Shown here: positions 37,740 through 60,700 of the stretch, in pieces
Numbering within the stretch: position 1 is the stretch's first letter
How the letters are laid out: every line of letters begins with the position of its first letter
Assembly: GCF_014699075.1 (NCBI RefSeq)
Contig: NZ_JACXAB010000008.1
Coordinates: 124,001-188,000, forward strand
Direction: 5' to 3'
DNA length: 64,000 bases
From: Microvirga sp.
Lineage (GTDB): Bacteria > Pseudomonadota > Alphaproteobacteria > Rhizobiales > Beijerinckiaceae
Notes under the pieces: model-generated
Databases searched by the model: none
The model's input: only the letters and a program-made list of their open reading frames with translations
Told to the model about the DNA's origin: nothing
Made by a program: the position numbers and the translations under genes

Positions 37740-37781
37740 GGCATCGAAGATCCTCCGGCGCACGTGAAGCAGGATGCAGAA

Positions 37782-39470
37782 ATGAAAGAGCGTTTCGACT
37801 ACATCGTCGTGGGCGGCGGATCATCCGGTTCCGTGGCCGCCGCTCGCCTCGTCAATGAAGGCAGGCGCGTGCTGCTGCTCGAGGGCGGCTATTCCCACCG
37901 CCATCCGCTTCTCGACATGCCGCCGGGCATCTTCAAGATGATCAACGGCAGCAAATACATGCGCTATCACCAGACGGTTCCCCAGGAGCATCTGGACGGG
38001 CGCGTGCACGACATCCCTCAAGCCAACGTTCTCGGCGGAGGCTCCTCTGTCAACGCACAGGTTTATATGCGCGGCCGCCCATCCGATTACGACGAATGGC
38101 ACGAGGCGCTGCATGGGGAGAACGATTATCCCGGCTGGAGTTGGGCCGACGTTCTGCCCCACTTCCGCACCATGGAAGGCAACAACAGGTTCTATAACGA
38201 TCTGCATGGCGCCGACGGGCCATTGCTGGTATCGGATCCCGGCCACATCAACGACATGTCGCGCTGGTTCGTGCAGGCCGTGCAGGCCCTGGGCGAGCCC
38301 TTCAACCCCGACTTCAATGGCCCCAAGCAGCGCGGCGTCGGCTTCTATCAGTTCATGAACCGGCGCGGCCGGCGCAGCAGCGCGGCCTACGCCTTCCTGG
38401 CGCCACTCGCCGACAATCCGAACCTCGTTATCCGTTTGCAGTCGCGGGTGAGAAAGATCGAGATCCAGAACGGGCGCGCCGTCGGCGTTACCTATCGCGA
38501 TGCCAAAGGTTTGGACCACCAAGTCTATGCGGACGGCGAGGTGATTCTGGCATCCGGCGCCCTCGTCACGCCCCAGCTTCTCATGCTCTCAGGCATCGGC
38601 CCAGCCGATCAACTGCGGGAGAACGGCATTTCCTGCATCGCCGATCTTCCCGGCATCGGCGCGAACCTCATCGACCACCCGGAGGTGCCACTGATCGCAA
38701 AAGCCAACGGACCCTATGGCTATTACAAGCAGGGCGTCGGCTGGCGCATGCTGCTCAACGGGATTCACTTCCGGCTGTTCGGCTCCGGCCCGATCCTCTC
38801 GGCAGGCGTCGAGGCCGGCGCCTTCGTGAACCCGGCCGATCCCGACGCCGAGCCGACGATCCAGGCCTTCTGCGTCCCGATCGTCTATTTGGATCGGGAC
38901 ACTCTCAATCTTGTCGAGGACACCTATGGACTGACAATCACCACCGTCGTGGTGAAGCCCAAATCCCGTGGTTATGTCCGCCTGCGCTCAGCAAACCCGG
39001 ATGATATGCCCCTCGTCTCGCCCAATCTGCTGAGCCATCCTGACGATGCTCGGGCAATGATTGATGGGCAGCGATTCTTCCTCCGTGCCTTCCAGACCAC
39101 GCCGCTCGCCGATCGGATCGAGCGCATCTCCATCCCGGACCCGAACGATCTCAGCGACGAGACGATCATGAAGCACTGCCGCCGCTTCGTGAAAACGAAT
39201 TACCACCCGAGCGGGACCTGCCGCATGGGGAGAGCCAGTGATGAAATGGCCGTTCTCGATTCCAGGCTGCGGGTCCGCGGAATCGAGAACCTGCGGGTTT
39301 GCGACCTTTCGGCGATGCCCAACATCAATGCGGGCAACACGAATGCGCCCGCAATGATGCTTGGGAGCCGTTGCGCAGAACTCATCACCGGCCGTCCAAC
39401 CATCAGCACCTCCCAGTTCGGCCCTCGTCTGTCCGAACAGGGGGACATGAGCGTCGCGACGTTAAGCTGA
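37782..39470 (+). CDS. GMC oxidoreductase (choline dehydrogenase-like flavoprotein)
   Basis: 562 residues from the ATG at 37782 (AGGA upstream; GTG 37764 is possible). FAD-binding YIVVGGGSSGSVAAARL is at the N-terminus, then GGGSSVNAQVYMRG. The catalytic His is in YHPSGTCRMG, and NTNAPAMMLGSRCAELI closes the FAD domain. It oxidises an alcohol or sugar hydroxyl and may start the pathway of the imported sugar. The last 186 bp belong to a 4.7-kb repeat, and a second, headless copy lies at 54342-54527. Confidence 0.9.
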   Translation: MKERFDYIVVGGGSSGSVAAARLVNEGRRVLLLEGGYSHRHPLLDMPPGIFKMINGSKYMRYHQTVPQEHLDGRVHDIPQANVLGGGSSVNAQVYMRGRPSDYDEWHEALHGENDYPGWSWADVLPHFRTMEGNNRFYNDLHGADGPLLVSDPGHINDMSRWFVQAVQALGEPFNPDFNGPKQRGVGFYQFMNRRGRRSSAAYAFLAPLADNPNLVIRLQSRVRKIEIQNGRAVGVTYRDAKGLDHQVYADGEVILASGALVTPQLLMLSGIGPADQLRENGISCIADLPGIGANLIDHPEVPLIAKANGPYGYYKQGVGWRMLLNGIHFRLFGSGPILSAGVEAGAFVNPADPDAEPTIQAFCVPIVYLDRDTLNLVEDTYGLTITTVVVKPKSRGYVRLRSANPDDMPLVSPNLLSHPDDARAMIDGQRFFLRAFQTTPLADRIERISIPDPNDLSDETIMKHCRRFVKTNYHPSGTCRMGRASDEMAVLDSRLRVRGIENLRVCDLSAMPNINAGNTNAPAMMLGSRCAELITGRPTISTSQFGPRLSEQGDMSVATLS

Positions 39471-39474
39471 GACA

Positions 39475-39508
39475 ACAAGGACCGGGGCTGAGGCACCCCG
39501 GTCCTTGT
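39475..39508. terminator. Bidirectional terminator between GMC and hlyD-type genes, copy 1
   Basis: ACAAGGACCGGGG (39475-39487) pairs with CCCCGGTCCTTGT (39496-39508), a 13-bp perfect stem with an 8-nt loop, in the 43 bp between convergent genes. U-tracts are short on both sides. Confidence 0.75.
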
Positions 39509-39513
39509 AGCGT

Positions 39514-40824
39514 TCACTCCTCGCGGAAAGCCTTGGCCATGTTGTCGGCGACCGGCTTCGTCAGGTACGAGAACACTGTGCGGTAGCCGGTCTGGATCAG
39601 CCCCTCCACGGGCATGCCCGGAACCAGCTTGAGATCACCCAGACGCTCCCGCTCACCGTCCGCGAAGGCCACGCGCACCGGGTAATACTGCATGCCTGTG
39701 CGCTGATCCGTCACCAGATCGGCCGCGATCATGCTCACTTTGCCTTTGAGTTCAGGCGTTGTTCGCTGGTTGAACGCCGACAGGCGCAGCACCGTGTCGA
39801 GACCGGGGCGGAGCTGGTCGATGTCCTGCGGGGAAACCTTCACCTCGATGGACAACTCGTCCGCCTCGGGAACGACAAGCATCAGGGATTCGCCGGCATT
39901 GATCACGCCGCCAACCGTATGCACGATTGACTGGTGCACGACGCCGTCCTGTGGGGCTCGAATGTCGATGCGCTTGAGCTGATCCTCGGCCGTGGTCTTG
40001 CGCTCGACGAGCTCCGCCGCCTTGGCCTGCACCTCGCGCAGTTCCTTGGACACCTCGCTCCTGAGATCCTGATCGATCTGGAGGATCTGAAGCGACGTTT
40101 CGCTGATGCGCCCCTTGGCCTGAGCGATGCTCGAGATCAGCTGTCCGCGCTCGCCCCGCAGCCTCGTTTCCTCACGCTTGAGAGATGTGACGCGCGTAAT
40201 CGGCACGAGGTTCTTCTTCCAGAGCTGCTCGACGCCAGTCAGCTCGTCCTGGATCAGCTGGATCTCGTCTCCCTTCGCTGAGGCCTGCAGCTTGAGGCCG
40301 TCGATCTGCTCCTGCAATTGCGAGATGCGCTCCTGCAGCTGGGCCTTCTGGCCGGCCCGGGCCTCGCGACGATCCTGGAACACGTTAGTCTCGCCCTGGA
40401 TCAGGCTGGCAAGCTCGGCATCCTGCAGACGGCTCTTGAAAGCAGCCGGGAAAGCAATCTTTTGCGATCCATCGCGCTCGGCTTCGAGGCGGCTCTGGCG
40501 GGCGGCCAGCTCATCCAGGCTCTTGGACACCATCGACAGACTCGCCCGTGCAACGGTCTCGTCGAGCCGGACCACCACGTCGCCTGCCCTGACCCGGTCG
40601 CCGTCACGGGCGAGGATCTCACCGACAACACCGCCGGTAGGATGCTGGACCTTCTTCACATAGGTGTCGACCACGATGGCGCCCGGTGCCACCACGGCTC
40701 CGGACAGCTCGGTCACGGCTGCCCAGCCTCCAAGACCGCCGACGAGGAAGAAGGCGGAAGAGAGCCCCACCAGCGAGTAGCGGCGGATCGCGGCACGGGC
40801 ACTTGGTTTGCGTTCGGACTTCAT
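39514..40824 (-). CDS. Type I secretion membrane-fusion protein (HlyD/PrtE type), copy 1
   Basis: 436 residues. One N-terminal transmembrane helix (about 16-38, YSLVGLSSAFFLVGGLGGWA) is followed by a periplasmic barrel and a long coiled-coil hairpin (about 95-290, rich in Glu/Gln/Leu). The HlyD barrel closes with IRAPQDGVVHQ and VKVSPQDIDQLRPG. It bridges the inner-membrane exporter to a TolC-type outer-membrane channel, not encoded here. GGGGGAA precedes the ATG. It lies 31 bp downstream of the exporter gene. Confidence 0.93.
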   Translation of the reverse strand: MKSERKPSARAAIRRYSLVGLSSAFFLVGGLGGWAAVTELSGAVVAPGAIVVDTYVKKVQHPTGGVVGEILARDGDRVRAGDVVVRLDETVARASLSMVSKSLDELAARQSRLEAERDGSQKIAFPAAFKSRLQDAELASLIQGETNVFQDRREARAGQKAQLQERISQLQEQIDGLKLQASAKGDEIQLIQDELTGVEQLWKKNLVPITRVTSLKREETRLRGERGQLISSIAQAKGRISETSLQILQIDQDLRSEVSKELREVQAKAAELVERKTTAEDQLKRIDIRAPQDGVVHQSIVHTVGGVINAGESLMLVVPEADELSIEVKVSPQDIDQLRPGLDTVLRLSAFNQRTTPELKGKVSMIAADLVTDQRTGMQYYPVRVAFADGERERLGDLKLVPGMPVEGLIQTGYRTVFSYLTKPVADNMAKAFREE

Positions 40825-40855
40825 GACATTCCCCCAGATCCTTGATGACTCAATC

Positions 40856-42595
40856 CTAGACGGCTTTCAGCGCAGTAGCGGTCGCCACCCGTGGCTCGGC
40901 GACTTGCGGGGCCGGAACCGGGCGCAGCACCTTGCTCAGGACTTCGTCCTTCGGGCCGAAGCTCTGCATCCGCCCCTCGCCCATCACCAGCACCAGATCG
41001 ACACCCGCAAGCGCACTCGGCCGGTGGGCGATGACCACCACGACCCCTCCCCGCGCCCTGATGCCCATGATCGCAGCCGTCAGGGCCTGCTCGCCCTCGT
41101 TGTCGAGGTTGGAGTTCGGCTCGTCGAGCACCACCAGGAAGGGATCACCATACAGGGCGCGGGCGAGAGCCAGGCGCTGGCGCTGCCCGCCCGACAGGGC
41201 CGCTCCCGCCTCGCCGACCTGCGTCTCATAGCCGTCCGGCAGTTGCAGGATCATCTCGTGGACATTGGCGGCCCTGGCGGCGGCGATGATGGCTTCCGCC
41301 TTCGGCTCGGGATCGAACCGCGCGATGTTCTGCGCCACGGTTCCGGCGAACAACTCCACGTCCTGCGGGAGATAGCCGATGTGTTGCCCGAGATCCTCCG
41401 GCAGCCATTGCTCGACGGCAGCGCCGTCGAAGCGAACCTTGCCGCGCCAGGTCGGCCACACGCCGACGATCATGCGAGCGAGCGAGGACTTGCCTGAGGC
41501 GCTGGGGCCGATGATGCCCAGACCGCTCCCGGCCTTCAGCTCGAAGGACACGTCCTGCACCGAGAACCTCTGCCCACCCGGAGCTCCGGAGCCGGCATTC
41601 TCGATCGACAGGATGGACCGGGGTGCTGGGAGCTTCAGGGGCTCGTCAGTCTGGGCATTCGCCTCAAGGAGCGTCTTAAGTCGGCGCCAGCCCTGGCGAG
41701 CACTGACGAAGCCCTTCCAGTTGCCGATGGCGAGCTCGACCGGCGCCATGGCGCGCGAGGTGAGGATCGAGCTGGCGATCATGATGCCGCCGGTCGCCTG
41801 GCCGTCGATGACCAGATAGGCACCGATCGCGAGCACCATGGATTGCAGCAGCATCCGCAGCACCTTCGACATGGCGCCGAAGCCACCCGCCACGTCGGAG
41901 GTCCGCTGCTGATGAGACAGGTAGCTGGCATTGGCATCGCCCCAGCGCACGCCGATGCGCCTGGCCATGCCCATGGCCTGGACGACCTCGGCGTTGCGGC
42001 GCGCGCCCTCAGAAATCCCGTTGCGCACGAGGGCCGCGCCCACGGCTGCCTTTGATGCTTCCTTGGTCATCACTTCTGTCAACAGCGTGATCACCACGAG
42101 AAGGCATGCACCGCCCAGGGCCGCAAGGCCGATCCAGGGGTGGAAGGCGAAGCAGATGAACAGATACAGAGGCATCCAGGGCAGATCGAAGAGTGCCGAC
42201 GGCCCGCCACCAGCCAGAAATGCGCGCAGTTGATCGAGATCGCGCAGGGGCTGCTGCCCGTCGCCGTCGACCTTGCCCTTGAGAGGCGCCTTGAGCTGCC
42301 CCTGGAAGATCTGCTGGCTCAGGTCCTCGTCGATGGCTGCGCCGACGCGCGCCATGATCCGACCACGGAGCGCATCGAAGAGGCCCTGGAAGAGGTAGAG
42401 CACCACGATAATGACGGAGAGACCCACGAGCGTCGGGATGCTCTGGCTCGGAAGAACCCGGTCGTAGACCTCCATCATGAAGATGGAGCCCGAGAGGTAA
42501 AGCAGGTTGATCAGGCCGCTCAACACTGCGACGCCCAGGAAGGCACCGCGACAGGAGGCCATGAGGCTGAGACGCTTCTTGAGGGGGCTGGTCAT
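40856..42595 (-). CDS. Type I secretion ABC exporter (PrtD type, permease-ATPase), copy 1
   Basis: 579 residues. A six-helix exporter domain (to about 310) is fused to an ATPase. Walker A is GPSASGKSSLARM, signature LSGGQRQRLALARAL, Walker B FLVVLDEPNSNLD, and the H-loop VIAHRPSAL. There is no N-terminal C39-like domain, as in PrtD/AprD exporters of RTX proteins. It transports the peroxidase encoded directly upstream. The operon order is substrate, exporter, fusion protein. Confidence 0.93.
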   Translation of the reverse strand: MTSPLKKRLSLMASCRGAFLGVAVLSGLINLLYLSGSIFMMEVYDRVLPSQSIPTLVGLSVIIVVLYLFQGLFDALRGRIMARVGAAIDEDLSQQIFQGQLKAPLKGKVDGDGQQPLRDLDQLRAFLAGGGPSALFDLPWMPLYLFICFAFHPWIGLAALGGACLLVVITLLTEVMTKEASKAAVGAALVRNGISEGARRNAEVVQAMGMARRIGVRWGDANASYLSHQQRTSDVAGGFGAMSKVLRMLLQSMVLAIGAYLVIDGQATGGIMIASSILTSRAMAPVELAIGNWKGFVSARQGWRRLKTLLEANAQTDEPLKLPAPRSILSIENAGSGAPGGQRFSVQDVSFELKAGSGLGIIGPSASGKSSLARMIVGVWPTWRGKVRFDGAAVEQWLPEDLGQHIGYLPQDVELFAGTVAQNIARFDPEPKAEAIIAAARAANVHEMILQLPDGYETQVGEAGAALSGGQRQRLALARALYGDPFLVVLDEPNSNLDNEGEQALTAAIMGIRARGGVVVVIAHRPSALAGVDLVLVMGEGRMQSFGPKDEVLSKVLRPVPAPQVAEPRVATATALKAV

Positions 42596-42665
42596 CGACT
42601 TGTACCTTGGGAAGTGTGCGTCACGTGAAGTGCCTTTGGCGGCACCGAACTTGTTTGAGTAACCC

Positions 42666-42698
42666 CGCCGGGAGCTTTGGGGGGCATAGCTCCCGGCG
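42666..42698 (-). other. Hairpin between RTX substrate and exporter genes, copy 1
   Basis: CGCCGGGAGCT (42666-42676) pairs with AGCTCCCGGCG (42688-42698), an 11-bp stem, 26 bp behind the peroxidase stop. It lacks a U-tract. It could limit read-through or protect the 3' end of the substrate mRNA, so that substrate exceeds exporter. Confidence 0.6.
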
Positions 42699-42723
42699 AG
42701 GTCACACCGATGTCGAACCAGCG

Positions 42724-45700
42724 TCAGAAGATGAAGCCGCTGCTGTCGAGATCGGATTCCTTAACGCCCTGAAGGACCGGGATGTCGTCTTCAGGAGCGA
42801 TGCGACCCTCGAAGATGCCAAAGTTGAGGAAATGGTCGAGAGCGTTGACCTCAGCCGCGGCCACGTCCGGATTGGCCTCCAGGTAGGCGGTGGTATCGAA
42901 CCCGGCCGCGGGATCACGGCCCTCCTTCGCGCCGAACTGGAAGTAGTGCTCGAGCGGGTTCACGCCGGCGGCTGCTACATCCGGGTTGGTCTCCAGATAG
43001 TAGCTGGTGTCGAACACCGCATTGGGATTACGGCCCTCCTTCCAACCATAGGTGTTGAAGTGCACGAGAGGATTTATTCCAGCCGCGCCGACATCCGGGT
43101 TGGCCAGCAGGTAATACTCCCGGTCGAAGCCGCCGACGATGTCCCGGCCGACCGCCGCGAAGGTCGCCCGACCCTCGAACTGACCCCAGGTGACGTAGTG
43201 GGCGAGCGGGTTCACGCCGGCTGCTGCCACATCCGGATTGGCCTGCAGGTACTGCTGCGTATCGAAGGACGCGGAGGCATCACGCCCCTCTCCCGCACCG
43301 TAGCGGGCATAGTGGTCGAGAGCACTCAGGCCGGCGGCCTTCACGTCCGGGTTGGCGGAGAGGTAAGCCGCCGCATCGAAGACCGCGTTGGCATCGCGTC
43401 CTTCCGCCTCGCCGAAGGCGAAGTAGTGCGCCTCGGCGTCCTGGCCGGCCTGCCAGACATCCTTGTTGTTGGCATAGTAGAACAGGTCGTCCACCAGCAG
43501 GTTGTTGTCGGTGCGCTCGATAGTGCCATCAGTAAAGGTGAGGCGCTGAGCCTTCGTGACATCGGCCGTTTCTCCGTTGGGCCCGGTGATGACGATATGG
43601 CCGCCGGCATAGCTCACGCTGGCCTGGCTGAAGGCGAAGCTGAAGCTGGAACCGGTCTCGATCACATTCTCGACTGGAACGGGATCGGGATCGGACGGGG
43701 TAACCGGCGCAGGATTGGCAGGCGTACCCGGAGCAGGCTTCTCGACGGTGATGGTTACCGTGCCTTCACTTGAGCCCCCCTGGCCGTCCGCCACCGTGTA
43801 GGTGAAGGAGGCCTCGCCGGTGAAGCCGGCTTTGGGCGTGAAGGTGATGGTGCCATCCTCATTGAGAACTGCTGTCCCATGCTCGTCCTCGTCGAGGTCG
43901 ACGAGGGAGAGCGTGCCGCCGTCAAGGTCGAGGTCGTTGGCCAGCAGCTGCGCTGCCGTCAGCTGGAGAACCTCCCCCTTCTGGACCGTGAAACGCTCCC
44001 CGATGACAACGGGACCCTCGTTGTCGGGAGTCTCCTCGTCGCCGTCATCCTCCTTTTCATGCTTCTTGAGACTGGGATTCCCGTCGCTCGCGTAGGTGAC
44101 GGAATGTGTGGCGCTCTTCCAAGTCACCGTGCCATTGGCGTTGACGATCTTGGCGTAGTCGTCGACATCCAGCCCCGGGGCCAGCTCGATCACGTCCTGA
44201 TCCCTCAGCGTTCCGACGATAGTGTCGTTGCCGCCGTTGGACTTGAACACGATCCGGTGCGCCGACTGCAGCGACGTGATGTCCACCGTGTCATTCCCGG
44301 CATTGCCGTCGACCGTGATGGTGCTGAAGTTCAGGCTCGTCCCGTTGAAGCTGCCGATAACCTGGATCGTGTCGCCATTGCTGCTGCCACCGTCAGGTTG
44401 GTTGGGGTTGTTGCCGTTGTTTGCGGTAGTATTCAGAAAGTTGACGCTGATCTCCTCGATGTTGTCGAGCTCGGCGATGATGTTAGCATTGGTAACGGCG
44501 CCGCCAGGTCCGTTGGTGTTTCGGGTCACGACGATTTCGGTCGCCGCGCCCAACCCCGTCATGCCGGCAGTGGCCGCCGCCTCTCTCGTATAGATCCGGA
44601 AGACCTCCCCACCTGCCACACCAGAAAGCCGGTAAGTGTCGACGCCGGCACCGCCATCGATGAAGTCACGACCTTCATTGCTGACCTGGTCGATGAAGTC
44701 GTTGCCGTCGCCGCCGTTGACAGTGTCGTTACCTGCCCCGCCGTTGAGTGTATCGATGCCATCGCCGCCGTTGACAGTGTCGTTACCTCCCCCGCCGTTG
44801 AGGCTGTTGCCAATGGCGTCGCCCGTCAGGTTATCGGCGCCCGATCCGCCCGTGACGTTCTCGATGCTGGTGATCGAGCCGAAGCCGGAGGCCGCTGCAG
44901 TCCCGAGGTTGACCGTGACACTGCTTGTTGAGCCGGCATACGACAGGGTATCAGCGCCTACCCCGAGATTGGCATTTACCGCCTCGACGTCGACAGCGAT
45001 GGAGCCGCTGCCTTCGATTTGAGTGATGCGGGTGCCATCAAACGCCACCGTGAGGGTTTCACCGTCAGCGCCCGTATCGATAATCGACAGCATATCGGTG
45101 TCGGCGCCACCGGAGATAACGTCATTTTCGTTGGGATCACCGTTAATATCGACCACGATGGTGTCGTTGCCGGAACCGCCGTTGATGTTATCGTTGCCGC
45201 CTCCGCCGGCCAGGTTATCATTGCCGGACCCGCCGTTCAGGGTATCATTGCCGGATTGCCCGAACAGGTTGTCGTTACCGTTGCCGCCGGTGACCGTATC
45301 GTTGCCTCCCGATCCATAGACGACACTGTCCGTGCCCCCTGCCGTGAGGTTGTTGGCACCGTTTGTACCGAAGACGACGGAGTTCGTTCCGGTCGTGATA
45401 GTGAACGTCTCCGTACGGGTTGCGCCGGTCGTGTCCGTCGTACTGATGTTGAGCGTGTAGGTCGCACTCGACGCCATGGGCGAACCGATCCGCGTGACGA
45501 CACCTGCCGGGCTCACTGCGAAGCCGGGGCTGCTTCCTGCTGCGAGAGCGTAAATAAATCCCGAGTTGGTGTCGGCATCAGTTGTGGCCAGATTAGCGAT
45601 GACGGTCCCTGCCGAGGGAAGTCCGTTCGCAAGGTTGCCGGTCAAGGCAACTCCATCATCCGGCGTCACACCGTTCCACTGGATATCGGTGGGCGGTATG

Positions 45701-50052: not shown

Positions 50053-50569
50053 GATAAAACCCTCACCCTTGTGTTCTTGAGAAGGACACCATCATCATGG
50101 GCTGGAAGGCAGGGGCTTTACTATCTGGGCTGAGGTCTAGGCCAAGTGTTTCGAAGGTCTCTACTGGTTAGGACCAAAGTTAAATTTCAAGGTCAGACTT
50201 TAGTTAACTGCGCCTTAGGATCTCCTGGCACGGTCGAGCTGGATCGAAGTCGTAGAATGACTAATCAAAAGAAAGCAGCCGTAGATCCAGCTTTCGAACA
50301 GAGACAATTGTCGTTCTGAAATCACAAGTGACTCATCACAATCTGGTTTATACCTCATTGGAGGTACCACCTTGTAGGCGGCAATGTGGTTTTCAACCCC
50401 TCCTTATTCGTATTGATATTTCACATGAATGGGAACATCCTCTTTCGAAGAGCTCTAAAAATATAAATGGGTTTAGCGTTTATGACTGGGCCAATACTTC
50501 AGCACCCAACAATAGCGCTATTTCAAGACTATGGGGCCTCACAAGAGGATCAACGGGACTAGTCGCGCG

Positions 50570-50583
50570 GTGACTGAGGTCAC
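50570..50583. promoter_or_regulatory. Inverted repeat GTGAC-N4-GTCAC
   Basis: GTGACTGAGGTCAC, 58 bp before the regulator start. A possible binding site for one of the local response regulators, or chance. Confidence 0.3.
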
Positions 50584-50603
50584 TGTGCCAAGAGAAGATT
50601 ATT

Positions 50604-50618
50604 TGCGTGACACACGCA
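50604..50618. promoter_or_regulatory. Inverted repeat TGCGTG-ACA-CACGCA
   Basis: Six-base arms with a 3-bp spacer, 22 bp before the LuxR-type gene. The position suits autoregulation by a LuxR/NarL HTH. Inferred only. Confidence 0.35.
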
Positions 50619-50640
50619 TGTTCTGCAACGGGGGGCGCTT

Positions 50641-51408: not shown

Positions 51409-51544
51409 CAAAGCAGCAGGAAGGTACTGCCAACTTGACGTTGATGGGACGCTATGGCTGTAAAATCGACAGACCAAAGTCGATTGTAGGAACCTTCACT
51501 GCTGTCTACCTGCACAATTCATAGTACTGCATACGGGGCGTGGG

Positions 51545-52963
51545 ATGTCAGAGTTGGCGCCATCGACATGGCTGGACCGTCAGAGCGCAATTCCGGTAAC
51601 CGTGAGTCTGACCCGCCAGTTCGCACTGACAGGCAGCGCAATCATGGTCGTTGCGATGATCGCCGCCGGCCTGTTCACTGCCGAGATGGTATCGAAAGCA
51701 ACGGTCGAGAACACTGCCTCGTCGACGGCTCTCCTGATCGATAGCTTCCTCGAGCCTTTGGTCCAAGGCTTGACGAGAGAGGACCTCCTGTCTGCCAACG
51801 AAACCACCGAGTTGAACCGGCTACTGGGAACAGATCACTTCAGGGAGAGATTTCCCCACTTGGAAATCTGGAAGGAAGGCGGACTCATTGTCTATTCAAC
51901 AACACCGAGCCTCATCGGCCGGAGATTTAACCCTCCTCCCGGACTGGTCACCGCTTTGGCCGGGGATATTTCTGCGCAATACGCTGACCTGAAGGCTCTC
52001 GAGCATCGGGTCAGTGGCCGCAGCCAAAAGTATCTTGAGATCTACATCCCCATCCGGGAGGAACGATCCGGCCGCGTCGTTGCCGTTGCAGAGATCCATG
52101 AGAGCACCGCACCGCTCGAAGTGAGGCTCTGGTGGGTGCGGTTGAAAAGCTGGCTTGCAGTCGTGTGTGCGACCTCGCTCATTATGCTCGGCCTGTTCGG
52201 GATCGTTTACCGGGGTAACAAACTCATACTTCTCCAGCGGCGCCAGCTTAATGAACGGTTGGTAGAAATAGAGCATACATCCCGACACAATCACATCCTT
52301 AAGGAGCGTGCTCAGCGCGCCTCCGGCCGAGTCGCGGAATTGACCGAGAATTATCTCCGGAGGATCGGCGCTGACTTACACGACGGCCCCGCGCAGCTCA
52401 TCGGCTTAGCTGCTCTAAGCGTGGAGCACGTCCGGCGTGCCCAGACACCCACGAAAAGGGATGAGGAGCTGCAGTTACTGAATTCCGTGCTTTCGGAGGC
52501 CCTCCGCGATATCCGAACCATGTCGAAGGGACTGATGCTGCCCGAGGTAGAAGATTTGCCGCTCCCCGAAGTTATCAAACGAATGGCTCTCAATCATGAG
52601 CGGCGGACTGGAACCAAGGTTACAGTTCATTGCGGTACCATTTCGCATACCCTCACGCACGGGATTAAAATTTGTGTGTACCGCTTTGTTCAGGAAGGAC
52701 TCAACAATGCCTTCCGCCATGCCGATGGCAATGGTCAGGTGGTAATGTGCAGGATCGATGACTCTGTTCTGTACTTAGCGGTACAGGATGATGGAGGAAC
52801 AGGCGTCAGTGGCCCTGCTCCCCCAGACTCGGGTTTAGGATTGGTGGGGATGCGGGAAAGAGTAGAAAGCCTGGGTGGCGTGTTTCGGGTGAGCCATCTT
52901 CCGAACGGGGGTAGCAGATTTGAAATGAGTGTCGTTATTTCGGAGGAGCCTCAAGATGGCTGA
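51545..52963 (+). CDS. Sensor histidine kinase, NarX/DegS type (HisKA_3)
   Basis: 472 residues. Two membrane helices (about 27-47 and 203-221) flank a periplasmic sensor of about 155 residues. A coiled-coil linker follows, then the phospho-acceptor His279 in ADLHDGPAQLIGL, typical of HisKA_3. The ATPase domain has an N-box QEGLNNAFRHADG (Asn386), DDGGTG and GLGLVGMRERV. It overlaps the following response regulator by 8 nt, which is clearly its partner. Confidence 0.92.
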   Translation: MSELAPSTWLDRQSAIPVTVSLTRQFALTGSAIMVVAMIAAGLFTAEMVSKATVENTASSTALLIDSFLEPLVQGLTREDLLSANETTELNRLLGTDHFRERFPHLEIWKEGGLIVYSTTPSLIGRRFNPPPGLVTALAGDISAQYADLKALEHRVSGRSQKYLEIYIPIREERSGRVVAVAEIHESTAPLEVRLWWVRLKSWLAVVCATSLIMLGLFGIVYRGNKLILLQRRQLNERLVEIEHTSRHNHILKERAQRASGRVAELTENYLRRIGADLHDGPAQLIGLAALSVEHVRRAQTPTKRDEELQLLNSVLSEALRDIRTMSKGLMLPEVEDLPLPEVIKRMALNHERRTGTKVTVHCGTISHTLTHGIKICVYRFVQEGLNNAFRHADGNGQVVMCRIDDSVLYLAVQDDGGTGVSGPAPPDSGLGLVGMRERVESLGGVFRVSHLPNGGSRFEMSVVISEEPQDG

Positions 52964-53612
52964 AAAGATTCGTGTTGTTGTGGTTGATGACCATGCGCTC
53001 CTGCGTAGAGGAGTTATTCGGGCGCTTGAACTCGATGACATGATTGAAGTCGTGGGGGAAGGCGCTTCGGCAGCGGATGCAATCAAGCTTGCAGGAGCGC
53101 ATGCGCCAGATCTCATCATGCTCGATATATCGATGCCTGGGAATGGAATCGAAGCCGCGCGCGTAATCCACAATCTTCCGGCCCCTACTCGCATCGTGAT
53201 GCTGACAGTATCAGGGGACGAAGACGACGTAATGCATGCACTTGAGGCTGGTGCTGTCGGCTATCTCCTCAAGGGGACCGACGCAAATGACCTAATCGCC
53301 GCCGTAAAATGTATAAGAGCTGGTGAGTCATTCATTGCTCCAGATCTTGCAGTACAGATACTGTCGAGCAAGGCTCGGGCAGAGGGCAGCTCGCTGACAT
53401 CGCTTTCTGAGCACGAGAAACGCACTTTGTGCCTGATCTCCGAGGGGCTGACCAACCGCGAGGTTGGTGAGCAACTCGCAGTATCGGAAAGGACAGTAAG
53501 ATATAATGTAATCAACATTTTCAGGAAACTTAAGGTGACGAACTGCGCCAAAGCGACGATTGTCGCGAAACAGTCATGGCGTGAACTTCAAAGTAGAATG
53601 AAATTGCACTGA
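52956..53612 (+). CDS. NarL/FixJ-type response regulator
   Basis: 218 residues from the ATG at 52956, with GGAGGAG upstream. The receiver has Asp11-Asp12, phospho-acceptor Asp57 (LIMLDISMP), Thr84 and Lys106 (GYLLKGTD). The LuxR HTH is LSEHEKRTLCLISEGLTNRE with SERTVRYNVINIFRKLKV. It is the phosphorylation partner of the overlapping kinase. Targets are unknown, and the nearby secreted peroxidases are candidates. Confidence 0.92.
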   Translation: MAEKIRVVVVDDHALLRRGVIRALELDDMIEVVGEGASAADAIKLAGAHAPDLIMLDISMPGNGIEAARVIHNLPAPTRIVMLTVSGDEDDVMHALEAGAVGYLLKGTDANDLIAAVKCIRAGESFIAPDLAVQILSSKARAEGSSLTSLSEHEKRTLCLISEGLTNREVGEQLAVSERTVRYNVINIFRKLKVTNCAKATIVAKQSWRELQSRMKLH

Positions 53613-53625
53613 CATGTGGTCAGTG
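53607..53625 (+). terminator. Weak hairpin at the end of the response-regulator gene
   Basis: CACTGAC (53607-53613) pairs with GTCAGTG (53619-53625), overlapping the stop codon. The stem is only 7 bp and no U-tract follows, so its role in termination is uncertain. Confidence 0.3.
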
Positions 53626-53834
53626 AAGCTGCCCTTCCGTTGGATCAGAGATACGAGATCAGCTCTGTTAATGAGGACGCGATGTTCGGCTCGGGGTGAG
53701 CAGCGAGACTATGGAGCTGGCATGAAGAGTGGCCGTACCCATGGTGGCAGTGCCGTGGCTCTCGACCACGTCCTCTAACAGCACGGCGACAAGGGGTTTG
53801 TGTCCTCTACAGTCACCGCACGCATGGATTCCTC

Positions 53835-54341
53835 CTACAGGGCAGTTCGTTCTGCGCGAGCACGGCTACCGACCGAGATGGCGGCCGCGACGATAACCAG
53901 AACCACCGCGGTCGCGAATGTGACCCGCGTGCTAACGGCGTCGGCGTGCGGCGCTCTCATGTCGATCGCTCCCGACGCAACGTGAACCACCCCCCGTGAC
54001 AGATGCGCCGGTGATAAGCCCGAGAACGCACGACAGGTTCAGCATGCCGGACATGACGCCACTATAGTCATGACCCACATCCGTCACGAAGGCGGTATTG
54101 TTGGCGACCTGAAACTGCGTATAGCCAGCCGTGACAACGATGAGCGGAGCCGACGTAGCTAGGGAAACCGAACGTCGCTGGCACCACCGAGAGGTCGAAC
54201 GAACTGGCCGCTGCTGTAACAAGTCCGACATTGGTTATGCGCCCTGGGCCGAACCGGTCGGCGACATGGTTGGCCGGGACGCCAGTCAGTGCAACAATCA
54301 GCCGACCCGTGGACATGACGAGCCCAGGGAGAGATAGCATT
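53835..54341 (-). pseudogene. MFS transporter remnant, C-terminal part, frameshifted
   Basis: Read on the minus strand from the repeat junction, three pieces in different frames resemble consecutive MFS segments. They are LSLPGLVMSTGRLIVALTGV with ADRFGPGRI (about 54340-54150), APLIVVTAGYTQFQVANNTA with GVMSGMLNLS (about 54150-54000), and RVTFATAVVLVIVAAAISVG ending at a stop at 53835. At least two frameshifts separate them. The N-terminal half is missing, cut off exactly where the 4.7-kb repeat begins. The 222 bp between it and the response regulator show nothing recognisable. Confidence 0.75.
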
Positions 54342-54527
54342 GAGAACCTGCGGGTTTGCGACCTTTCGGCGATGCCCAACATCAATGCGGGCAACACGAA
54401 TGCGCCCGCAATGATGCTTGGGAGCCGTTGCGCAGAACTCATCACCGGCCGTCCAACCATCAGCACCTCCCAGTTCGGCCCTCGTCTGTCCGAACAGGGG
54501 GACATGAGCGTCGCGACGTTAAGCTGA
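54342..54527 (+). pseudogene. Headless 3' end of GMC oxidoreductase (repeat copy 2)
   Basis: Identical to the last 61 codons plus stop of the GMC gene at 37782-39470. It begins abruptly beside the MFS remnant, with no FAD domain, start or promoter. It is a passenger of the duplication. Confidence 0.92.
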
Positions 54528-54531
54528 GACA

Positions 54532-54565
54532 ACAAGGACCGGGGCTGAGGCACCCCGGTCCTTGT
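54532..54565. terminator. Terminator behind hlyD-type gene, copy 2
   Basis: Same 13-bp stem as at 39475-39508. Here it only serves the minus-strand exporter operon, since the GMC piece is not expressed. Confidence 0.72.
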
Positions 54566-54570
54566 AGCGT

Positions 54571-55881
54571 TCACTCCTCGCGGAAAGCCTTGGCCATGTT
54601 GTCGGCGACCGGCTTCGTCAGGTACGAGAACACTGTGCGGTAGCCGGTCTGGATCAGCCCCTCCACGGGCATGCCCGGAACCAGCTTGAGATCACCCAGA
54701 CGCTCCCGCTCACCGTCCGCGAAGGCCACGCGCACCGGGTAATACTGCATGCCTGTGCGCTGATCCGTCACCAGATCGGCCGCGATCATGCTCACTTTGC
54801 CTTTGAGTTCAGGCGTTGTTCGCTGGTTGAACGCCGACAGGCGCAGCACCGTGTCGAGACCGGGGCGGAGCTGGTCGATGTCCTGCGGGGAAACCTTCAC
54901 CTCGATGGACAACTCGTCCGCCTCGGGAACGACAAGCATCAGGGATTCGCCGGCATTGATCACGCCGCCAACCGTATGCACGATTGACTGGTGCACGACG
55001 CCGTCCTGTGGGGCTCGAATGTCGATGCGCTTGAGCTGATCCTCGGCCGTGGTCTTGCGCTCGACGAGCTCCGCCGCCTTGGCCTGCACCTCGCGCAGTT
55101 CCTTGGACACCTCGCTCCTGAGATCCTGATCGATCTGGAGGATCTGAAGCGACGTTTCGCTGATGCGCCCCTTGGCCTGAGCGATGCTCGAGATCAGCTG
55201 TCCGCGCTCGCCCCGCAGCCTCGTTTCCTCACGCTTGAGAGATGTGACGCGCGTAATCGGCACGAGGTTCTTCTTCCAGAGCTGCTCGACGCCAGTCAGC
55301 TCGTCCTGGATCAGCTGGATCTCGTCTCCCTTCGCTGAGGCCTGCAGCTTGAGGCCGTCGATCTGCTCCTGCAATTGCGAGATGCGCTCCTGCAGCTGGG
55401 CCTTCTGGCCGGCCCGGGCCTCGCGACGATCCTGGAACACGTTAGTCTCGCCCTGGATCAGGCTGGCAAGCTCGGCATCCTGCAGACGGCTCTTGAAAGC
55501 AGCCGGGAAAGCAATCTTTTGCGATCCATCGCGCTCGGCTTCGAGGCGGCTCTGGCGGGCGGCCAGCTCATCCAGGCTCTTGGACACCATCGACAGACTC
55601 GCCCGTGCAACGGTCTCGTCGAGCCGGACCACCACGTCGCCTGCCCTGACCCGGTCGCCGTCACGGGCGAGGATCTCACCGACAACACCGCCGGTAGGAT
55701 GCTGGACCTTCTTCACATAGGTGTCGACCACGATGGCGCCCGGTGCCACCACGGCTCCGGACAGCTCGGTCACGGCTGCCCAGCCTCCAAGACCGCCGAC
55801 GAGGAAGAAGGCGGAAGAGAGCCCCACCAGCGAGTAGCGGCGGATCGCGGCACGGGCACTTGGTTTGCGTTCGGACTTCAT
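54571..55881 (-). CDS. Type I secretion membrane-fusion protein (HlyD/PrtE type), copy 2
   Basis: 436 residues, identical to the protein at 39514-40824: single N-terminal helix, coiled-coil hairpin, barrel. Its ribosome site and the 31-bp spacing to the exporter gene are duplicated too. With no sequence difference it is functionally redundant. The copies can differ only in the promoter and substrate upstream. Confidence 0.93.
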   Translation of the reverse strand: MKSERKPSARAAIRRYSLVGLSSAFFLVGGLGGWAAVTELSGAVVAPGAIVVDTYVKKVQHPTGGVVGEILARDGDRVRAGDVVVRLDETVARASLSMVSKSLDELAARQSRLEAERDGSQKIAFPAAFKSRLQDAELASLIQGETNVFQDRREARAGQKAQLQERISQLQEQIDGLKLQASAKGDEIQLIQDELTGVEQLWKKNLVPITRVTSLKREETRLRGERGQLISSIAQAKGRISETSLQILQIDQDLRSEVSKELREVQAKAAELVERKTTAEDQLKRIDIRAPQDGVVHQSIVHTVGGVINAGESLMLVVPEADELSIEVKVSPQDIDQLRPGLDTVLRLSAFNQRTTPELKGKVSMIAADLVTDQRTGMQYYPVRVAFADGERERLGDLKLVPGMPVEGLIQTGYRTVFSYLTKPVADNMAKAFREE

Positions 55882-55912
55882 GACATTCCCCCAGATCCTT
55901 GATGACTCAATC

Positions 55913-57652
55913 CTAGACGGCTTTCAGCGCAGTAGCGGTCGCCACCCGTGGCTCGGCGACTTGCGGGGCCGGAACCGGGCGCAGCACCTTGCTCAGGACT
56001 TCGTCCTTCGGGCCGAAGCTCTGCATCCGCCCCTCGCCCATCACCAGCACCAGATCGACACCCGCAAGCGCACTCGGCCGGTGGGCGATGACCACCACGA
56101 CCCCTCCCCGCGCCCTGATGCCCATGATCGCAGCCGTCAGGGCCTGCTCGCCCTCGTTGTCGAGGTTGGAGTTCGGCTCGTCGAGCACCACCAGGAAGGG
56201 ATCACCATACAGGGCGCGGGCGAGAGCCAGGCGCTGGCGCTGCCCGCCCGACAGGGCCGCTCCCGCCTCGCCGACCTGCGTCTCATAGCCGTCCGGCAGT
56301 TGCAGGATCATCTCGTGGACATTGGCGGCCCTGGCGGCGGCGATGATGGCTTCCGCCTTCGGCTCGGGATCGAACCGCGCGATGTTCTGCGCCACGGTTC
56401 CGGCGAACAACTCCACGTCCTGCGGGAGATAGCCGATGTGTTGCCCGAGATCCTCCGGCAGCCATTGCTCGACGGCAGCGCCGTCGAAGCGAACCTTGCC
56501 GCGCCAGGTCGGCCACACGCCGACGATCATGCGAGCGAGCGAGGACTTGCCTGAGGCGCTGGGGCCGATGATGCCCAGACCGCTCCCGGCCTTCAGCTCG
56601 AAGGACACGTCCTGCACCGAGAACCTCTGCCCACCCGGAGCTCCGGAGCCGGCATTCTCGATCGACAGGATGGACCGGGGTGCTGGGAGCTTCAGGGGCT
56701 CGTCAGTCTGGGCATTCGCCTCAAGGAGCGTCTTAAGTCGGCGCCAGCCCTGGCGAGCACTGACGAAGCCCTTCCAGTTGCCGATGGCGAGCTCGACCGG
56801 CGCCATGGCGCGCGAGGTGAGGATCGAGCTGGCGATCATGATGCCGCCGGTCGCCTGGCCGTCGATGACCAGATAGGCACCGATCGCGAGCACCATGGAT
56901 TGCAGCAGCATCCGCAGCACCTTCGACATGGCGCCGAAGCCACCCGCCACGTCGGAGGTCCGCTGCTGATGAGACAGGTAGCTGGCATTGGCATCGCCCC
57001 AGCGCACGCCGATGCGCCTGGCCATGCCCATGGCCTGGACGACCTCGGCGTTGCGGCGCGCGCCCTCAGAAATCCCGTTGCGCACGAGGGCCGCGCCCAC
57101 GGCTGCCTTTGATGCTTCCTTGGTCATCACTTCTGTCAACAGCGTGATCACCACGAGAAGGCATGCACCGCCCAGGGCCGCAAGGCCGATCCAGGGGTGG
57201 AAGGCGAAGCAGATGAACAGATACAGAGGCATCCAGGGCAGATCGAAGAGTGCCGACGGCCCGCCACCAGCCAGAAATGCGCGCAGTTGATCGAGATCGC
57301 GCAGGGGCTGCTGCCCGTCGCCGTCGACCTTGCCCTTGAGAGGCGCCTTGAGCTGCCCCTGGAAGATCTGCTGGCTCAGGTCCTCGTCGATGGCTGCGCC
57401 GACGCGCGCCATGATCCGACCACGGAGCGCATCGAAGAGGCCCTGGAAGAGGTAGAGCACCACGATAATGACGGAGAGACCCACGAGCGTCGGGATGCTC
57501 TGGCTCGGAAGAACCCGGTCGTAGACCTCCATCATGAAGATGGAGCCCGAGAGGTAAAGCAGGTTGATCAGGCCGCTCAACACTGCGACGCCCAGGAAGG
57601 CACCGCGACAGGAGGCCATGAGGCTGAGACGCTTCTTGAGGGGGCTGGTCAT
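55913..57652 (-). CDS. Type I secretion ABC exporter (PrtD type), copy 2
   Basis: 579 residues, identical to the exporter at 40856-42595, with the same Walker A, signature and Walker B. It stands behind the second RTX peroxidase gene in the same order. Because the substrate C-termini are also identical, each exporter should accept both peroxidases. Confidence 0.93.
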   Translation of the reverse strand: MTSPLKKRLSLMASCRGAFLGVAVLSGLINLLYLSGSIFMMEVYDRVLPSQSIPTLVGLSVIIVVLYLFQGLFDALRGRIMARVGAAIDEDLSQQIFQGQLKAPLKGKVDGDGQQPLRDLDQLRAFLAGGGPSALFDLPWMPLYLFICFAFHPWIGLAALGGACLLVVITLLTEVMTKEASKAAVGAALVRNGISEGARRNAEVVQAMGMARRIGVRWGDANASYLSHQQRTSDVAGGFGAMSKVLRMLLQSMVLAIGAYLVIDGQATGGIMIASSILTSRAMAPVELAIGNWKGFVSARQGWRRLKTLLEANAQTDEPLKLPAPRSILSIENAGSGAPGGQRFSVQDVSFELKAGSGLGIIGPSASGKSSLARMIVGVWPTWRGKVRFDGAAVEQWLPEDLGQHIGYLPQDVELFAGTVAQNIARFDPEPKAEAIIAAARAANVHEMILQLPDGYETQVGEAGAALSGGQRQRLALARALYGDPFLVVLDEPNSNLDNEGEQALTAAIMGIRARGGVVVVIAHRPSALAGVDLVLVMGEGRMQSFGPKDEVLSKVLRPVPAPQVAEPRVATATALKAV

Positions 57653-57722
57653 CGACTTGTACCTTGGGAAGTGTGCGTCACGTGAAGTGCCTTTGGCGGC
57701 ACCGAACTTGTTTGAGTAACCC

Positions 57723-57755
57723 CGCCGGGAGCTTTGGGGGGCATAGCTCCCGGCG
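57723..57755 (-). other. Hairpin between RTX substrate and exporter genes, copy 2
   Basis: Duplicate of the 11-bp stem at 42666-42698, 25 bp behind the second peroxidase stop. Confidence 0.6.
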
Positions 57756-57780
57756 AGGTCACACCGATGTCGAACCAGCG

Positions 57781-60700
57781 TCAGAAGATGAAGCCGCTGC
57801 TGTCGAGATCGGATTCCTTAACGCCCTGAAGGACCGGGATGTCGTCTTCAGGAGCGATGCGACCCTCGAAGATGCCAAAGTTGAGGAAATGGTCGAGAGC
57901 GTTGACCTCAGCCGCGGCCACGTCCGGATTGGCCTCCAGGTAGGCGGTGGTATCGAACCCGGCCGCGGGATCACGGCCCTCCTTCGCGCCGAACTGGAAG
58001 TAGTGCTCGAGCGGGTTCACGCCGGCGGCTGCTACATCCGGGTTGGTCTCCAGATAGTAGCTGGTGTCGAACACCGCATTGGGATTACGGCCCTCCTTCC
58101 AACCATAGGTGTTGAAGTGCACGAGAGGATTTATTCCAGCCGCGCCGACATCCGGGTTGGCCAGCAGGTAATACTCCCGGTCGAAGCCGCCGACGATGTC
58201 CCGGCCGACCGCCGCGAAGGTCGCCCGACCCTCGAACTGACCCCAGGTGACGTAGTGGGCGAGCGGGTTCACGCCGGCTGCTGCCACATCCGGATTGGCC
58301 TGCAGGTACTGCTGCGTATCGAAGGACGCGGAGGCATCACGCCCCTCTCCCGCACCGTAGCGGGCATAGTGGTCGAGAGCACTCAGGCCGGCGGCCTTCA
58401 CGTCCGGGTTGGCGGAGAGGTAAGCCGCCGCATCGAAGACCGCGTTGGCATCGCGTCCTTCCGCCTCGCCGAAGGCGAAGTAGTGCGCCTCGGCGTCCTG
58501 GCCGGCCTGCCAGACATCCTTGTTGTTGGCATAGTAGAACAGGTCGTCCACCAGCAGGTTGTTGTCGGTGCGCTCGATAGTGCCATCAGTAAAGGTGAGG
58601 CGCTGAGCCTTCGTGACATCGGCCGTTTCTCCGTTGGGCCCGGTGATGACGATATGGCCGCCGGCATAGCTCACGCTGGCCTGGCTGAAGGCGAAGCTGA
58701 AGCTGGAACCGGTCTCGATCACATTCTCGACTGGAACGGGATCGGGATCGGACGGGGTAACCGGCGCAGGATTGGCAGGCGTACCCGGAGCAGGCTTCTC
58801 GACGGTGATGGTTACCGTGCCTTCACTTGAGCCCCCCTGGCCGTCCGCCACCGTGTAGGTGAAGGAGGCCTCGCCGGTGAAGCCGGCTTTGGGCGTGAAG
58901 GTGATGGTGCCATCCTCATTGAGAACTGCTGTCCCATGCTCGTCCTCGTCGAGGTCGACGAGGGAGAGCGTGCCGCCGTCAAGGTCGAGGTCGTTGGCCA
59001 GCAGCTGCGCTGCCGTCAGCTGGAGAACCTCCCCCTTCTGGACCGTGAAACGCTCCCCGATGACAACGGGCTTTTGATTGTCGGTCGGCTCCTCATTGTC
59101 ATGGTCATCATGTTCCCCAAGAATGGGATCCCCATCGCTCACATAGGTGATCGAGTGCGTGCCGCTCGTCAGGGTGACCGAGCCGTTCTCGTTGACAACC
59201 TTGGTGTAGTTGGCAGCGGTGAGGCCCGGCGCCAGCTCAATCACGTCCTGGGCCCGCAGCGTCCCGACAATGGTGTCGTTGCCGCCGTTGGAGCGGAACA
59301 CGATACGGTGCGCCGAAGTCAGGCCCGAGATGTCCACGATGTCGGCCCCTTCGTCACCATCGATGGTGATGGTGTTCGGGCGCAGGCTCGTGGCCGAGAA
59401 GTCGCCGATGATCTGGAAGGTGTCGCTCCCGGCATTTCCGGCTTCCCCGGCAGGATCGAAGCCGTTGATCCTGATCTCCTCGATCTCCGCCAGTTCGGCG
59501 ATGACCGAGGCATACGTGGCTCCGTCGCGGGTGATCACGATCTCAGTGCCGGCACTCAGGCTTCCAGGTCCTTTATCCGCAAGCGCATTCCAGGCGTCTC
59601 GCGTATAGATCCTGTAGACCTCAGCGGAAGCATTGCCGTTGATCACGAATGTGTCCCCAGTCGTGCCTTCAGTTCCACCATTGACCAGATCGCGACCATC
59701 CGTTGTTCCCACGGAATTGGCATTCCAGATGATAGTGTCATCCCCTGCGTCGCCGTTGATGGTATCAACGCCAGCGTTCAGGGCGGGCATGGTGAAGTTC
59801 ACCGCTAGGTTGTCGATATAGAAGTTTTCCGCGCCCAAGAAGGACAAGGTGCTCCCAAGAGCGCCCGTATCAAAGCTGCCTTCAGCTCGGAGTTGGATGG
59901 CGGTGTGGGAAGCGGACAGTGCCGTCGTGAAGGTTCCGGTACCATTGCCGCCAAGAGTGCCCAGCACCTGCCAGGCGCTGCCGTTGAAGGCTTCGACTAC
60001 AACATTCTCCCCGCTGTCGAGATTAACGCCCTCGTAGTTAAACGACAGTGTCGCTGAAGTGGCACCAGCCAGGTTGATAGAGCGCTGGATAGTTTCGCCC
60101 CCGTCAATGCCGACGGCGAACCGCAGGCGTCCATCGCTGACCAGGATGTCCCCAGCTGTAGCCCCTCCGGCCTCGTCACCACCTTCTGTCCAAGCACCGG
60201 TCCAGCCCACCGTACCAGTGCTGTTGGTATAGTCCTGCAAGCTGAAGTTATCGGCATAGGTGCCGGTATTGGAGCCGGTACCACCGGACAGGGTGTCGTT
60301 GCCGTCACCACCGTTGAGGGTATCAGCACCTTCGTTGCCGTTTAGGACGTCGTTGCCGCCACCGCCGAACAGCACATCGTTGCCACCGAGCCCGTTGATG
60401 GTGTTAGCAGTGTTGGTGCCCGTAATAGTGTTCGGACCTTCGGTGGGGGCTCCGAACTCCGGCGGTGCGGCCGGAGCCAGAGTGAAGTCATTTATGTCGA
60501 TCTGGGTATCGGTGACATTGTTGATGCGGATCCTGCCCAGCTCGTTTCCTGCGCCGTCATTGACGATGAGCAAGCGGCCGGCCGGACCCGTCACGGCGGT
60601 TTCCATCACACGTGTCGCAAAGTTTGCAGCCGTGACACCCAGGGCACTTAGGTCGATCTTGTCCTGGTTGGTGGCAAGGCCGCCATCGGCATCGAAGCTG

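What the first reader, a model, noticed from the sequence alone, without database searches (positions are those of the whole stretch)
39285..59070. Identical 4.7-kb direct repeat duplicating a whole type I exporter
Positions 39285-44013 and 54342-59070 match at a constant offset of 15,057 bp. The two HlyD-type and two PrtD-type proteins are identical, and I saw no base difference in any compared stretch. Ordinary paralogues would have drifted at silent sites, so the event is very recent or conversion is ongoing. A simple tandem duplication is excluded because sequence right of 59070 does not continue as right of 44013. The intact GMC gene makes copy 1 the donor.
Basis: partly seen in the sequence, partly recalled or inferred. 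Interest (0 to 1): 0.85.

Follow-up and report, generated by a model that had tools for sequence, protein, structure and literature searches.

The report
Duplicated exporter cassette between peroxidase operons
In a soil bacterium (Microvirga), two neighbouring operons for different secreted peroxidases end in the same exact 4.7-kb stretch, the tail of the secreted protein plus its export pump, most likely because one operon was inserted beside the other through this shared stretch.

Summary
The repeat is real: 39285-44013 and 54342-59070 are identical over 4729 bp, and maximal. The anatomy needs correcting. The repeat holds the 3' 430 codons (stop included) of an RTX animal-haem-peroxidase gene, prtD, hlyD, a hairpin and 186 bp of the GMC gene's 3' end. 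Right of it homology does continue: two diverged RTX-peroxidase paralogues (2442 and 3061 aa), each followed by two-component regulators. Three relatives keep GMC beside the exporter; in the two with long enough contigs, RTX2-side genes follow at the same locus. So the RTX1 unit looks like a 15,057-bp insertion made through the exporter. In M. soli the order GMC-tail/hlyD/prtD/RTX1/RR1a/HK1/RR1b lies elsewhere, as an excised circle would predict. M. subterranea independently has two different RTX-peroxidase genes running into one collapsed 3,843-bp RTX-tail/prtD/hlyD contig. Caveat: contig tips sharing 77 bp mark a k=77 short-read assembly, so copy number and linkage of the unit, even a separate 15-kb circle, need long reads. 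Best reading: recent recombinational insertion (0.5); main rival: older duplication kept identical by gene conversion (0.33).

The parts
39285..44013 (.). repeat copy 1 (4729 bp)
   Evidence: identical base for base to 54342-59070
54342..59070 (.). repeat copy 2 (4729 bp)
37764..39470 (+). GMC oxidoreductase gene, intact; its last 186 bp are in repeat copy 1
   Evidence: Pfam PF00732/PF05199
54342..54527 (+). 186-bp 3' end of the GMC gene, without the rest, at the left edge of copy 2
39475..39508. 13-bp-stem hairpin between GMC and hlyD (possible terminator; the simple terminator scan did not list it), duplicated in copy 2
   Evidence: fold z -3.45 for 39460-39530
39514..40824 (-). hlyD, type I secretion adaptor, copy 1 (copy 2: 54571-55881)
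   Evidence: TIGR01843 385.9 bits, cut-off 208.65
40856..42595 (-). prtD, type I secretion permease/ATPase, copy 1 (copy 2: 55913-57652)
   Evidence: TIGR01842 746.3 bits, cut-off 510.15
42724..50052 (-). RTX1: RTX-repeat animal-type haem peroxidase, 2442 aa; last 429 aa inside the repeat
   Evidence: Pfam PF03098, PF00353
57781..64000 (-). RTX2: paralogous RTX haem peroxidase, 3061 aa, intact, runs out of the window (to contig C90:190966); last 429 aa identical to RTX1
50641..51408 (+). RR1a, LuxR-type response regulator of the RTX1 unit
51545..52963 (+). HK1, histidine kinase of the RTX1 unit
52929..53612 (+). RR1b, LuxR-type response regulator of the RTX1 unit
53870..54341 (-). decayed fragment of an MFS transporter gene, cut at 54341|54342 where the GMC tail begins
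   Evidence: 74% to G000:C81:2946-3409, which lies in a 521-aa MFS_1 protein
44014..54341 (.). 10,328-bp unique part of the 15,057-bp unit (rest of RTX1, RR1a, HK1, RR1b, MFS fragment)
   Evidence: in BSC39 and M. splendida the GMC locus has one RTX gene, only paralogous to this part (63-67% DNA), and no RR1a/HK1/RR1b orthologue

Best explanation
Two RTX-type haem-peroxidase secretion units stand in tandem. One, with the GMC gene on its hlyD side and HK2/RR2b/RR2c/FdhD beyond RTX2, is the older locus of this group of species. The other (RTX1, RR1a, HK1, RR1b, MFS fragment) was recently inserted between the exporter and RTX2 by recombination at the shared export cassette. Either a circle carrying GMC-tail/hlyD/prtD/RTX1/HK1/MFS recombined by a single crossover with the resident exporter, or incoming RTX1-unit DNA joined by homology at the RTX 3' end and by a very short microhomology at the MFS/GMC joint. 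Both give what is seen: a 15,057-bp unit flanked by exact direct repeats of the export cassette. The two peroxidases then share an identical C-terminal secretion region and identical inner-membrane exporters. Shown: sequence identity, edges, synteny, paralogy. Inferred: recombination route, direction, function.
For: Exact identity with abrupt ends, one inside continuing homology and one at an edge of homology. Single-copy locus GMC-hlyD-prtD-RTX in BSC39 (then HK2-RR2b-RR2c) and M. splendida (then RR2c and FdhD); GMC-hlyD-prtD in G034, where the contig ends. RTX1-type genes with HK1/RR1-type regulators occur elsewhere in VF16, M. lupini, 3-52 and M. soli. In M. soli, contigs C150 and C171 overlap end to start by 155 bp at 99.4%, giving GMC-tail(57 bp)-hlyD-prtD-RTX1-RR1a-HK1-RR1b away from GMC, the permutation expected of an excised or donor circle. 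The MFS paralogue carries GAG where the joint falls, so GAG may be shared microhomology. 0 changes in about 1090 synonymous sites. The MFS stretch matched 6 of the 47 other genus genomes; none of these 6 loci (nor the own paralogue) has the GMC tail within the fetched 1.5-kb flanks, beyond chance 18-base matches, while a GMC-bearing control locus gave the full 186 bp.
Against: No integrase or replication gene was seen among the proteins of the unit that were scanned (not every ORF was scanned), and in the plasmid collection the best record covers 28% of the unique part. At the RTX 3' side the two paralogues are only 71% alike next to the joint, poor ground for homologous crossover, so the crossover would have to lie in the exporter and the incoming exporter be already near-identical. 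The M. soli tail is 57 bp, not 186, its exporter groups with G034 rather than G000 (100% support), and its right flank does not resemble the MFS fragment, so it is not simply the same event. RTX type and regulator type are not strictly paired in the genus: HK1/RR1b also stand by RTX2-type genes (L156, L158, L162, L163; RR1b alone L160) and HK2/RR2 by an RTX1-type gene (L159). The M. subterranea case shows identity can also arise between separate operons, which favours conversion.
Confidence: 0.5

Rival explanations
1. The tandem arrangement is older, and recurrent gene conversion between the two direct repeats keeps the export cassette identical while the peroxidase parts and regulators diverge (concerted evolution).
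For: RTX1/RTX2 N-terminal parts are saturated at silent sites (dS 1.3) while the adjoining cassette is identical. M. subterranea: one 3,843-bp contig (RTX tail, prtD, hlyD) is entered by two different RTX-peroxidase genes (95-bp exact overlaps with C1 and C9; both peroxidases by Pfam) and left by two different flanks (95-bp exact matches at the very ends of C15 and C4), and the identity ends exactly at the hlyD stop codon, as conversion up to an edge of homology would leave it. In M. soli the ectopic exporter and the GMC-side remnant are 91.0% alike over 446 aligned bases, against 85.2% and 84.5% to G000; but the ectopic copy is almost as close to G034 (89.7%).
Against: Neither BSC39 nor M. 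splendida, the two close relatives with contigs long enough to show it, has the tandem arrangement, and no MFS/GMC-tail joint was found. In G000 conversion would have to reach the last base of the 186-bp GMC tail. In the 47 other genus genomes, prtD matches of 74% identity or more occur at most twice per genome, and in the 6 genomes with two they differ clearly in identity to the query (exact pairs collapsed by an assembler, as in M. subterranea, count once there).
Confidence: 0.33
2. The assembled linkage is a graph choice: the chromosome is GMC-exporter-RTX2 (the order in relatives) and the RTX1 unit is a separate 15,057-bp circle, or is present in several tandem copies, or varies in the culture.
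For: k=77 short-read assembly signature; the assembly graph of a loop A-E-C-E-B is the same as that of A-E-B plus circle E-C. RecA-dependent excision between 4.7-kb direct repeats is expected from established knowledge.
Against: No replication gene among the unit's proteins that were scanned, so a stable circle is unlikely; tandem copies in the chromosome are not excluded.
Confidence: 0.13
3. Simple recent tandem duplication of a 15-kb unit.
For: Constant offset, direct orientation, both units of the same kind.
Against: Outside the 4.7 kb the units are far diverged: 67-71% DNA identity in the RTX genes, and in the regulator regions only two short DNA matches, 160 bases at 66% and 42 bases at 81%.
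Confidence: 0.02

Closest known systems
PrtD/HlyD type I secretion exporters with linked RTX substrate
   Same: ABC permease/ATPase and adaptor beside an RTX protein; both above NCBIfam cut-offs
   Different: two different substrates share a byte-identical exporter and C-terminal region in tandem; no outer-membrane partner identified in the repeat
PepA-type bacterial animal haem peroxidases (PERCAL motif; PMC3396595, passages seen) and MopA Mn oxidases (PMC6247904, listing and start of abstract seen)
   Same: animal-peroxidase domain, PERCAL motifs (1 in RTX1, 3 in RTX2), RTX repeats, distal and proximal His-like motifs (the His motifs are recalled)
   Different: C-terminal array of five NPDV-containing repeats instead of the terminal RTX repeats seen in relatives; substrate unknown
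Campbell-type single-crossover insertion / merodiploid direct repeats (recalled)
   Same: insert flanked by long exact direct repeats at a site that is single-copy in relatives
   Different: no vector or mobile-element genes found among the proteins scanned; the homology arm is the exporter itself
Concerted evolution of bacterial duplicate genes, e.g. tuf pairs, rRNA operons (recalled)
   Same: copies identical within a genome while species differ
   Different: the identical tract stops inside a gene, so only the secretion end and exporter are shared while the enzyme part diverges

Membership tests
PrtD/HlyD type I secretion system | ABC permease/ATPase of the PrtD subfamily | tested here: met
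   TIGR01842 746.3 bits over cut-off 510.15
PrtD/HlyD type I secretion system | HlyD-type periplasmic adaptor | tested here: met
   TIGR01843 385.9 bits over 208.65
PrtD/HlyD type I secretion system | outer-membrane TolC-type partner | not tested
   none among the proteins scanned around the repeat; the rest of the genome was not searched for one
PrtD/HlyD type I secretion system | substrate with RTX repeats | tested here: met
   PF00353 in both RTX1 and RTX2
PrtD/HlyD type I secretion system | export of the substrate | not testable with these tools
   needs an assay
PepA-type animal haem peroxidase | An_peroxidase domain | tested here: met
   RTX1 202.3 bits; RTX2 N-terminal 900 aa 141.8 bits; cut-off 25. 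The window part of RTX2 alone gives 22.6, under the cut-off
PepA-type animal haem peroxidase | PERCAL motif G-x-D-G-x-x-[GN]-[TN]-x-D-D | tested here: met
   1 in RTX1, 3 in RTX2
PepA-type animal haem peroxidase | haem binding and peroxidase activity | not testable with these tools
   needs an assay
RTX family haemolysin (toxin) | whole-protein score over NCBIfam NF033943 cut-off | tested here: not met
   RTX1 91.7 bits against 1000; RTX2's N-terminal 900 aa had no NCBIfam hit, the rest of RTX2 was not scanned there
Campbell-type insertion | long exact direct repeats flanking an insert | tested here: met
Campbell-type insertion | single-copy pre-insertion locus in relatives | tested here: met
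   L154 and L155; G034 is a 4-kb contig that shows only the GMC side
Campbell-type insertion | circular or permuted donor form | tested here: inconclusive
   M. soli has the permuted order at another locus, with a different tail length and other flanks
Concerted evolution by gene conversion | duplication older than the species split while copies are identical within each species | tested here: inconclusive
   no relative with the same tandem arrangement was seen in the searches of 48 genus genomes (the match list is cut); M. subterranea shows a parallel case
Simple tandem duplication | homologous sequence of equal age along the whole unit | tested here: not met
   100% in 4.7 kb, 67-71% beyond

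The most novel reading that the evidence does not exclude
In Microvirga the export cassette (C-terminal secretion region of the RTX protein + prtD + hlyD) acts as a portable homology arm: RTX-peroxidase units excise and insert as circles by recombination in the cassette, and the cassette is homogenised between units, so that new enzyme cargo is always coupled to a matching secretion signal and exporter. G000 shows the inserted state, M. soli the permuted unit at another locus, M. subterranea a homogenised pair in two operons.
Probability: 0.22. Interest if true: 0.65.

Novelty: new variant of a known kind. Interest (0 to 1): 0.45.

Why it matters
It is a clean natural case where two paralogous secreted enzymes diverge in the enzyme part but keep one identical secretion end and pump. 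It makes it testable whether substrate signal and exporter are held together by recombination, and whether such units can excise and amplify between 4.7-kb repeats. It also warns that short-read assemblies collapse or loop through such cassettes, so their copy number across the genus may be undercounted.

Tried and rejected
16S search to judge the assembly type: no hit in G000, but also none in 3 of 7 other genomes, two of them single-contig, so worthless as a test. Plasmid collection with the unique part: 15 records, best coverage 28%, no donor. MFS fragment across 48 genomes: own genome plus 6 others, 68-90% identity, none with the GMC tail beside it. M. soli right flank against the MFS fragment: nothing convincing. 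Flank tree: star-like, 85.6-88.9% between species, cannot order the splits. M. aerophila contig tip: one other contig shares 77 bp, uninformative. M. solisilvae contig tip: a repeated hlyD tail, but no branching on the RTX side, so not counted as a third case. My first idea that RTX2 was broken was wrong: it only runs out of the window. My first idea that a 630-aa ORF in M. soli C95 is an RTX2 remnant was dropped: it is an animal peroxidase, more likely the separate short peroxidase that also lies beside FdhD in M. splendida. My note gives M. splendida an HK2 and RR2b; one search shows only RR2c there. Literature searches: no listed title or abstract start describes this arrangement; only listings, abstract starts and passages of PMC3396595 were seen. 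Assembler loop behaviour, homology-facilitated illegitimate recombination, Campbell integration and tuf conversion are recalled.
Full report
OBSERVATION. The two blocks are identical base for base over 4729 positions and the match is maximal. The repeat holds, left to right: the last 186 bp of a GMC oxidoreductase gene, a 13-bp-stem hairpin, hlyD, prtD and the last 430 codons (stop included) of an RTX gene. HlyD and PrtD score over the NCBIfam cut-offs of the type I secretion adaptor and the PrtD permease/ATPase.

ANATOMY. Both RTX genes are intact. RTX1 has 2442 aa; RTX2 has 3061 aa and runs out of the window to contig position 190966. Both are animal-type haem peroxidases with RTX repeats and PERCAL motifs as described in PMC3396595 (passages seen; motif count). 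They are identical in their last 429 aa and about 40-69% alike elsewhere in 200-column steps; N-terminal dS is 1.3. RTX1 is followed by RR1a-HK1-RR1b, RTX2 by HK2-RR2b-RR2c. So homology does continue to the right of 44013/59070: 71.4% over the next 357 aligned bases and 67-69% in later stretches, against the finding. In the regulator regions only two short DNA matches remain.

SYNTENY. The genome is a Microvirga: its window was found in G000, whose genus mates share contigs with Microvirga records. In BSC39 the order is GMC-hlyD-prtD-RTX-HK2-RR2b-RR2c, single copy; in M. splendida GMC-hlyD-prtD-RTX-RR2c-FdhD (no HK2 or RR2b match there); G034 shows GMC-hlyD-prtD on a 4-kb contig. G000 has the same outer flanks, but between them an extra 15,057 bp: RTX1, RR1a, HK1, RR1b, an MFS fragment and a second cassette with only the GMC tail. 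RTX1-type genes with HK1/RR1-type regulators occur in M. soli, VF16, M. lupini and 3-52, but the pairing is not strict: HK1/RR1b also stand by RTX2-type genes (L156, L158, L162, L163; RR1b alone L160) and HK2/RR2 by an RTX1-type gene (L159). In M. soli, contigs C150 and C171 overlap by 155 bp at 99.4% exactly at their ends, giving GMC-tail(57 bp)-hlyD-prtD-RTX1-RR1a-HK1-RR1b at a locus with an IS1595-type transposase, while its GMC locus keeps an hlyD remnant interrupted by another transposase gene. That order is the one a circle excised from a G000-like arrangement would have. Against a shared event: the tail lengths differ, the flanks are unrelated, and the soli exporter groups with G034 (100% support).

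AGE. No difference in about 777 (hlyD+prtD) plus 313 (RTX end) synonymous sites; the same hlyD and prtD differ from M. soli, BSC39 and M. splendida by dS 0.41-0.63. A 95% upper limit of 3 changes gives dS below 0.003, under 1% of that distance (inference). If the assembler merged two copies despite rare differences, this limit would be looser.

A SECOND CASE. The two RTX genes are 82% alike next to the joint and 66-74% in later matches. So two operons there share an exact RTX-tail/prtD/hlyD cassette, by the logic of the assembly graph. Of 48 genus genomes searched with PrtD, two therefore show an identical pair (G000, G040). Others could be missed: exporter-contig tips were examined only in G040, G028 and G002, besides M. 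soli.

ASSEMBLY. Of 81 contig tips of G000 compared (of 202), 7 pairs share exactly 77 bp, one pair 74, and one contig's ends overlap by 65, so it is most likely a k=77 de Bruijn short-read assembly. The four joints (GMC-cassette, MFS fragment-cassette, cassette-RTX1, cassette-RTX2) should each be supported by reads, but their pairing and the number of RTX1 units are a graph solution. A chromosome in the relatives' order plus a 15,057-bp circle has the same graph. No replication gene was seen among the unit's scanned proteins, so I hold a stable circle unlikely.

MECHANISM. Two accounts fit. (1) Recent insertion of the RTX1 unit by recombination at the cassette: it explains position, joint (possible GAG microhomology, judged from the MFS paralogue), identity up to both edges and the absence from two relatives. 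(2) Older tandem plus gene conversion: it explains the M. subterranea pair, where identity ends exactly at the end of homology. I put 0.5 and 0.33. In either case the outcome is that two different secreted peroxidases carry one secretion end and one inner-membrane exporter; that either exporter serves both is inference.

VERDICT. It is a new variant of known recombination behaviour, with a recurrence in a second species that raises its interest.

Noticed in passing
window 42778-43730 (and 57835-58787): Both RTX proteins end in five NPDV-containing repeats. The twelve RTX proteins printed (eleven from relatives' RTX loci or fragments plus a second M. soli one) have 0-2 NPD and no such array; about 70% similar DNA lies at own C101:145229-145794 and in G009:C39.
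   Followed up: partly
G028 (M. solisilvae) C5:35748-35881, C21:1-134, C3:1-134: The last part of hlyD plus a hairpin is repeated exactly (134 bp) at the tips of two other contigs, both preceded by the same CAGCGTCCTGTTTG; looks like a captured hlyD tail in a small repeated element.
   Followed up: partly
L189 (M. soli C95) 13634-15140: hlyD remnant next to GMC interrupted by a transposase gene (DDE_Tnp_1, DUF772) with a 4-base overlap at the edges, possibly a target-site duplication.
   Followed up: no
L155 about 2095-3594, L154 40-1452, L189 about 11627-13546: A further short peroxidase gene lies between RR2c (or the exporter remnant) and FdhD in M. splendida and M. soli, and next to RR2c in BSC39; G000 has none between RR2c and FdhD.
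   Followed up: no
window 4154-4494, 5165-5411, 15087-15333, 16001-16341: About 70% similar direct and inverted repeats in the left part of the window, probably paralogous genes.
   Followed up: no
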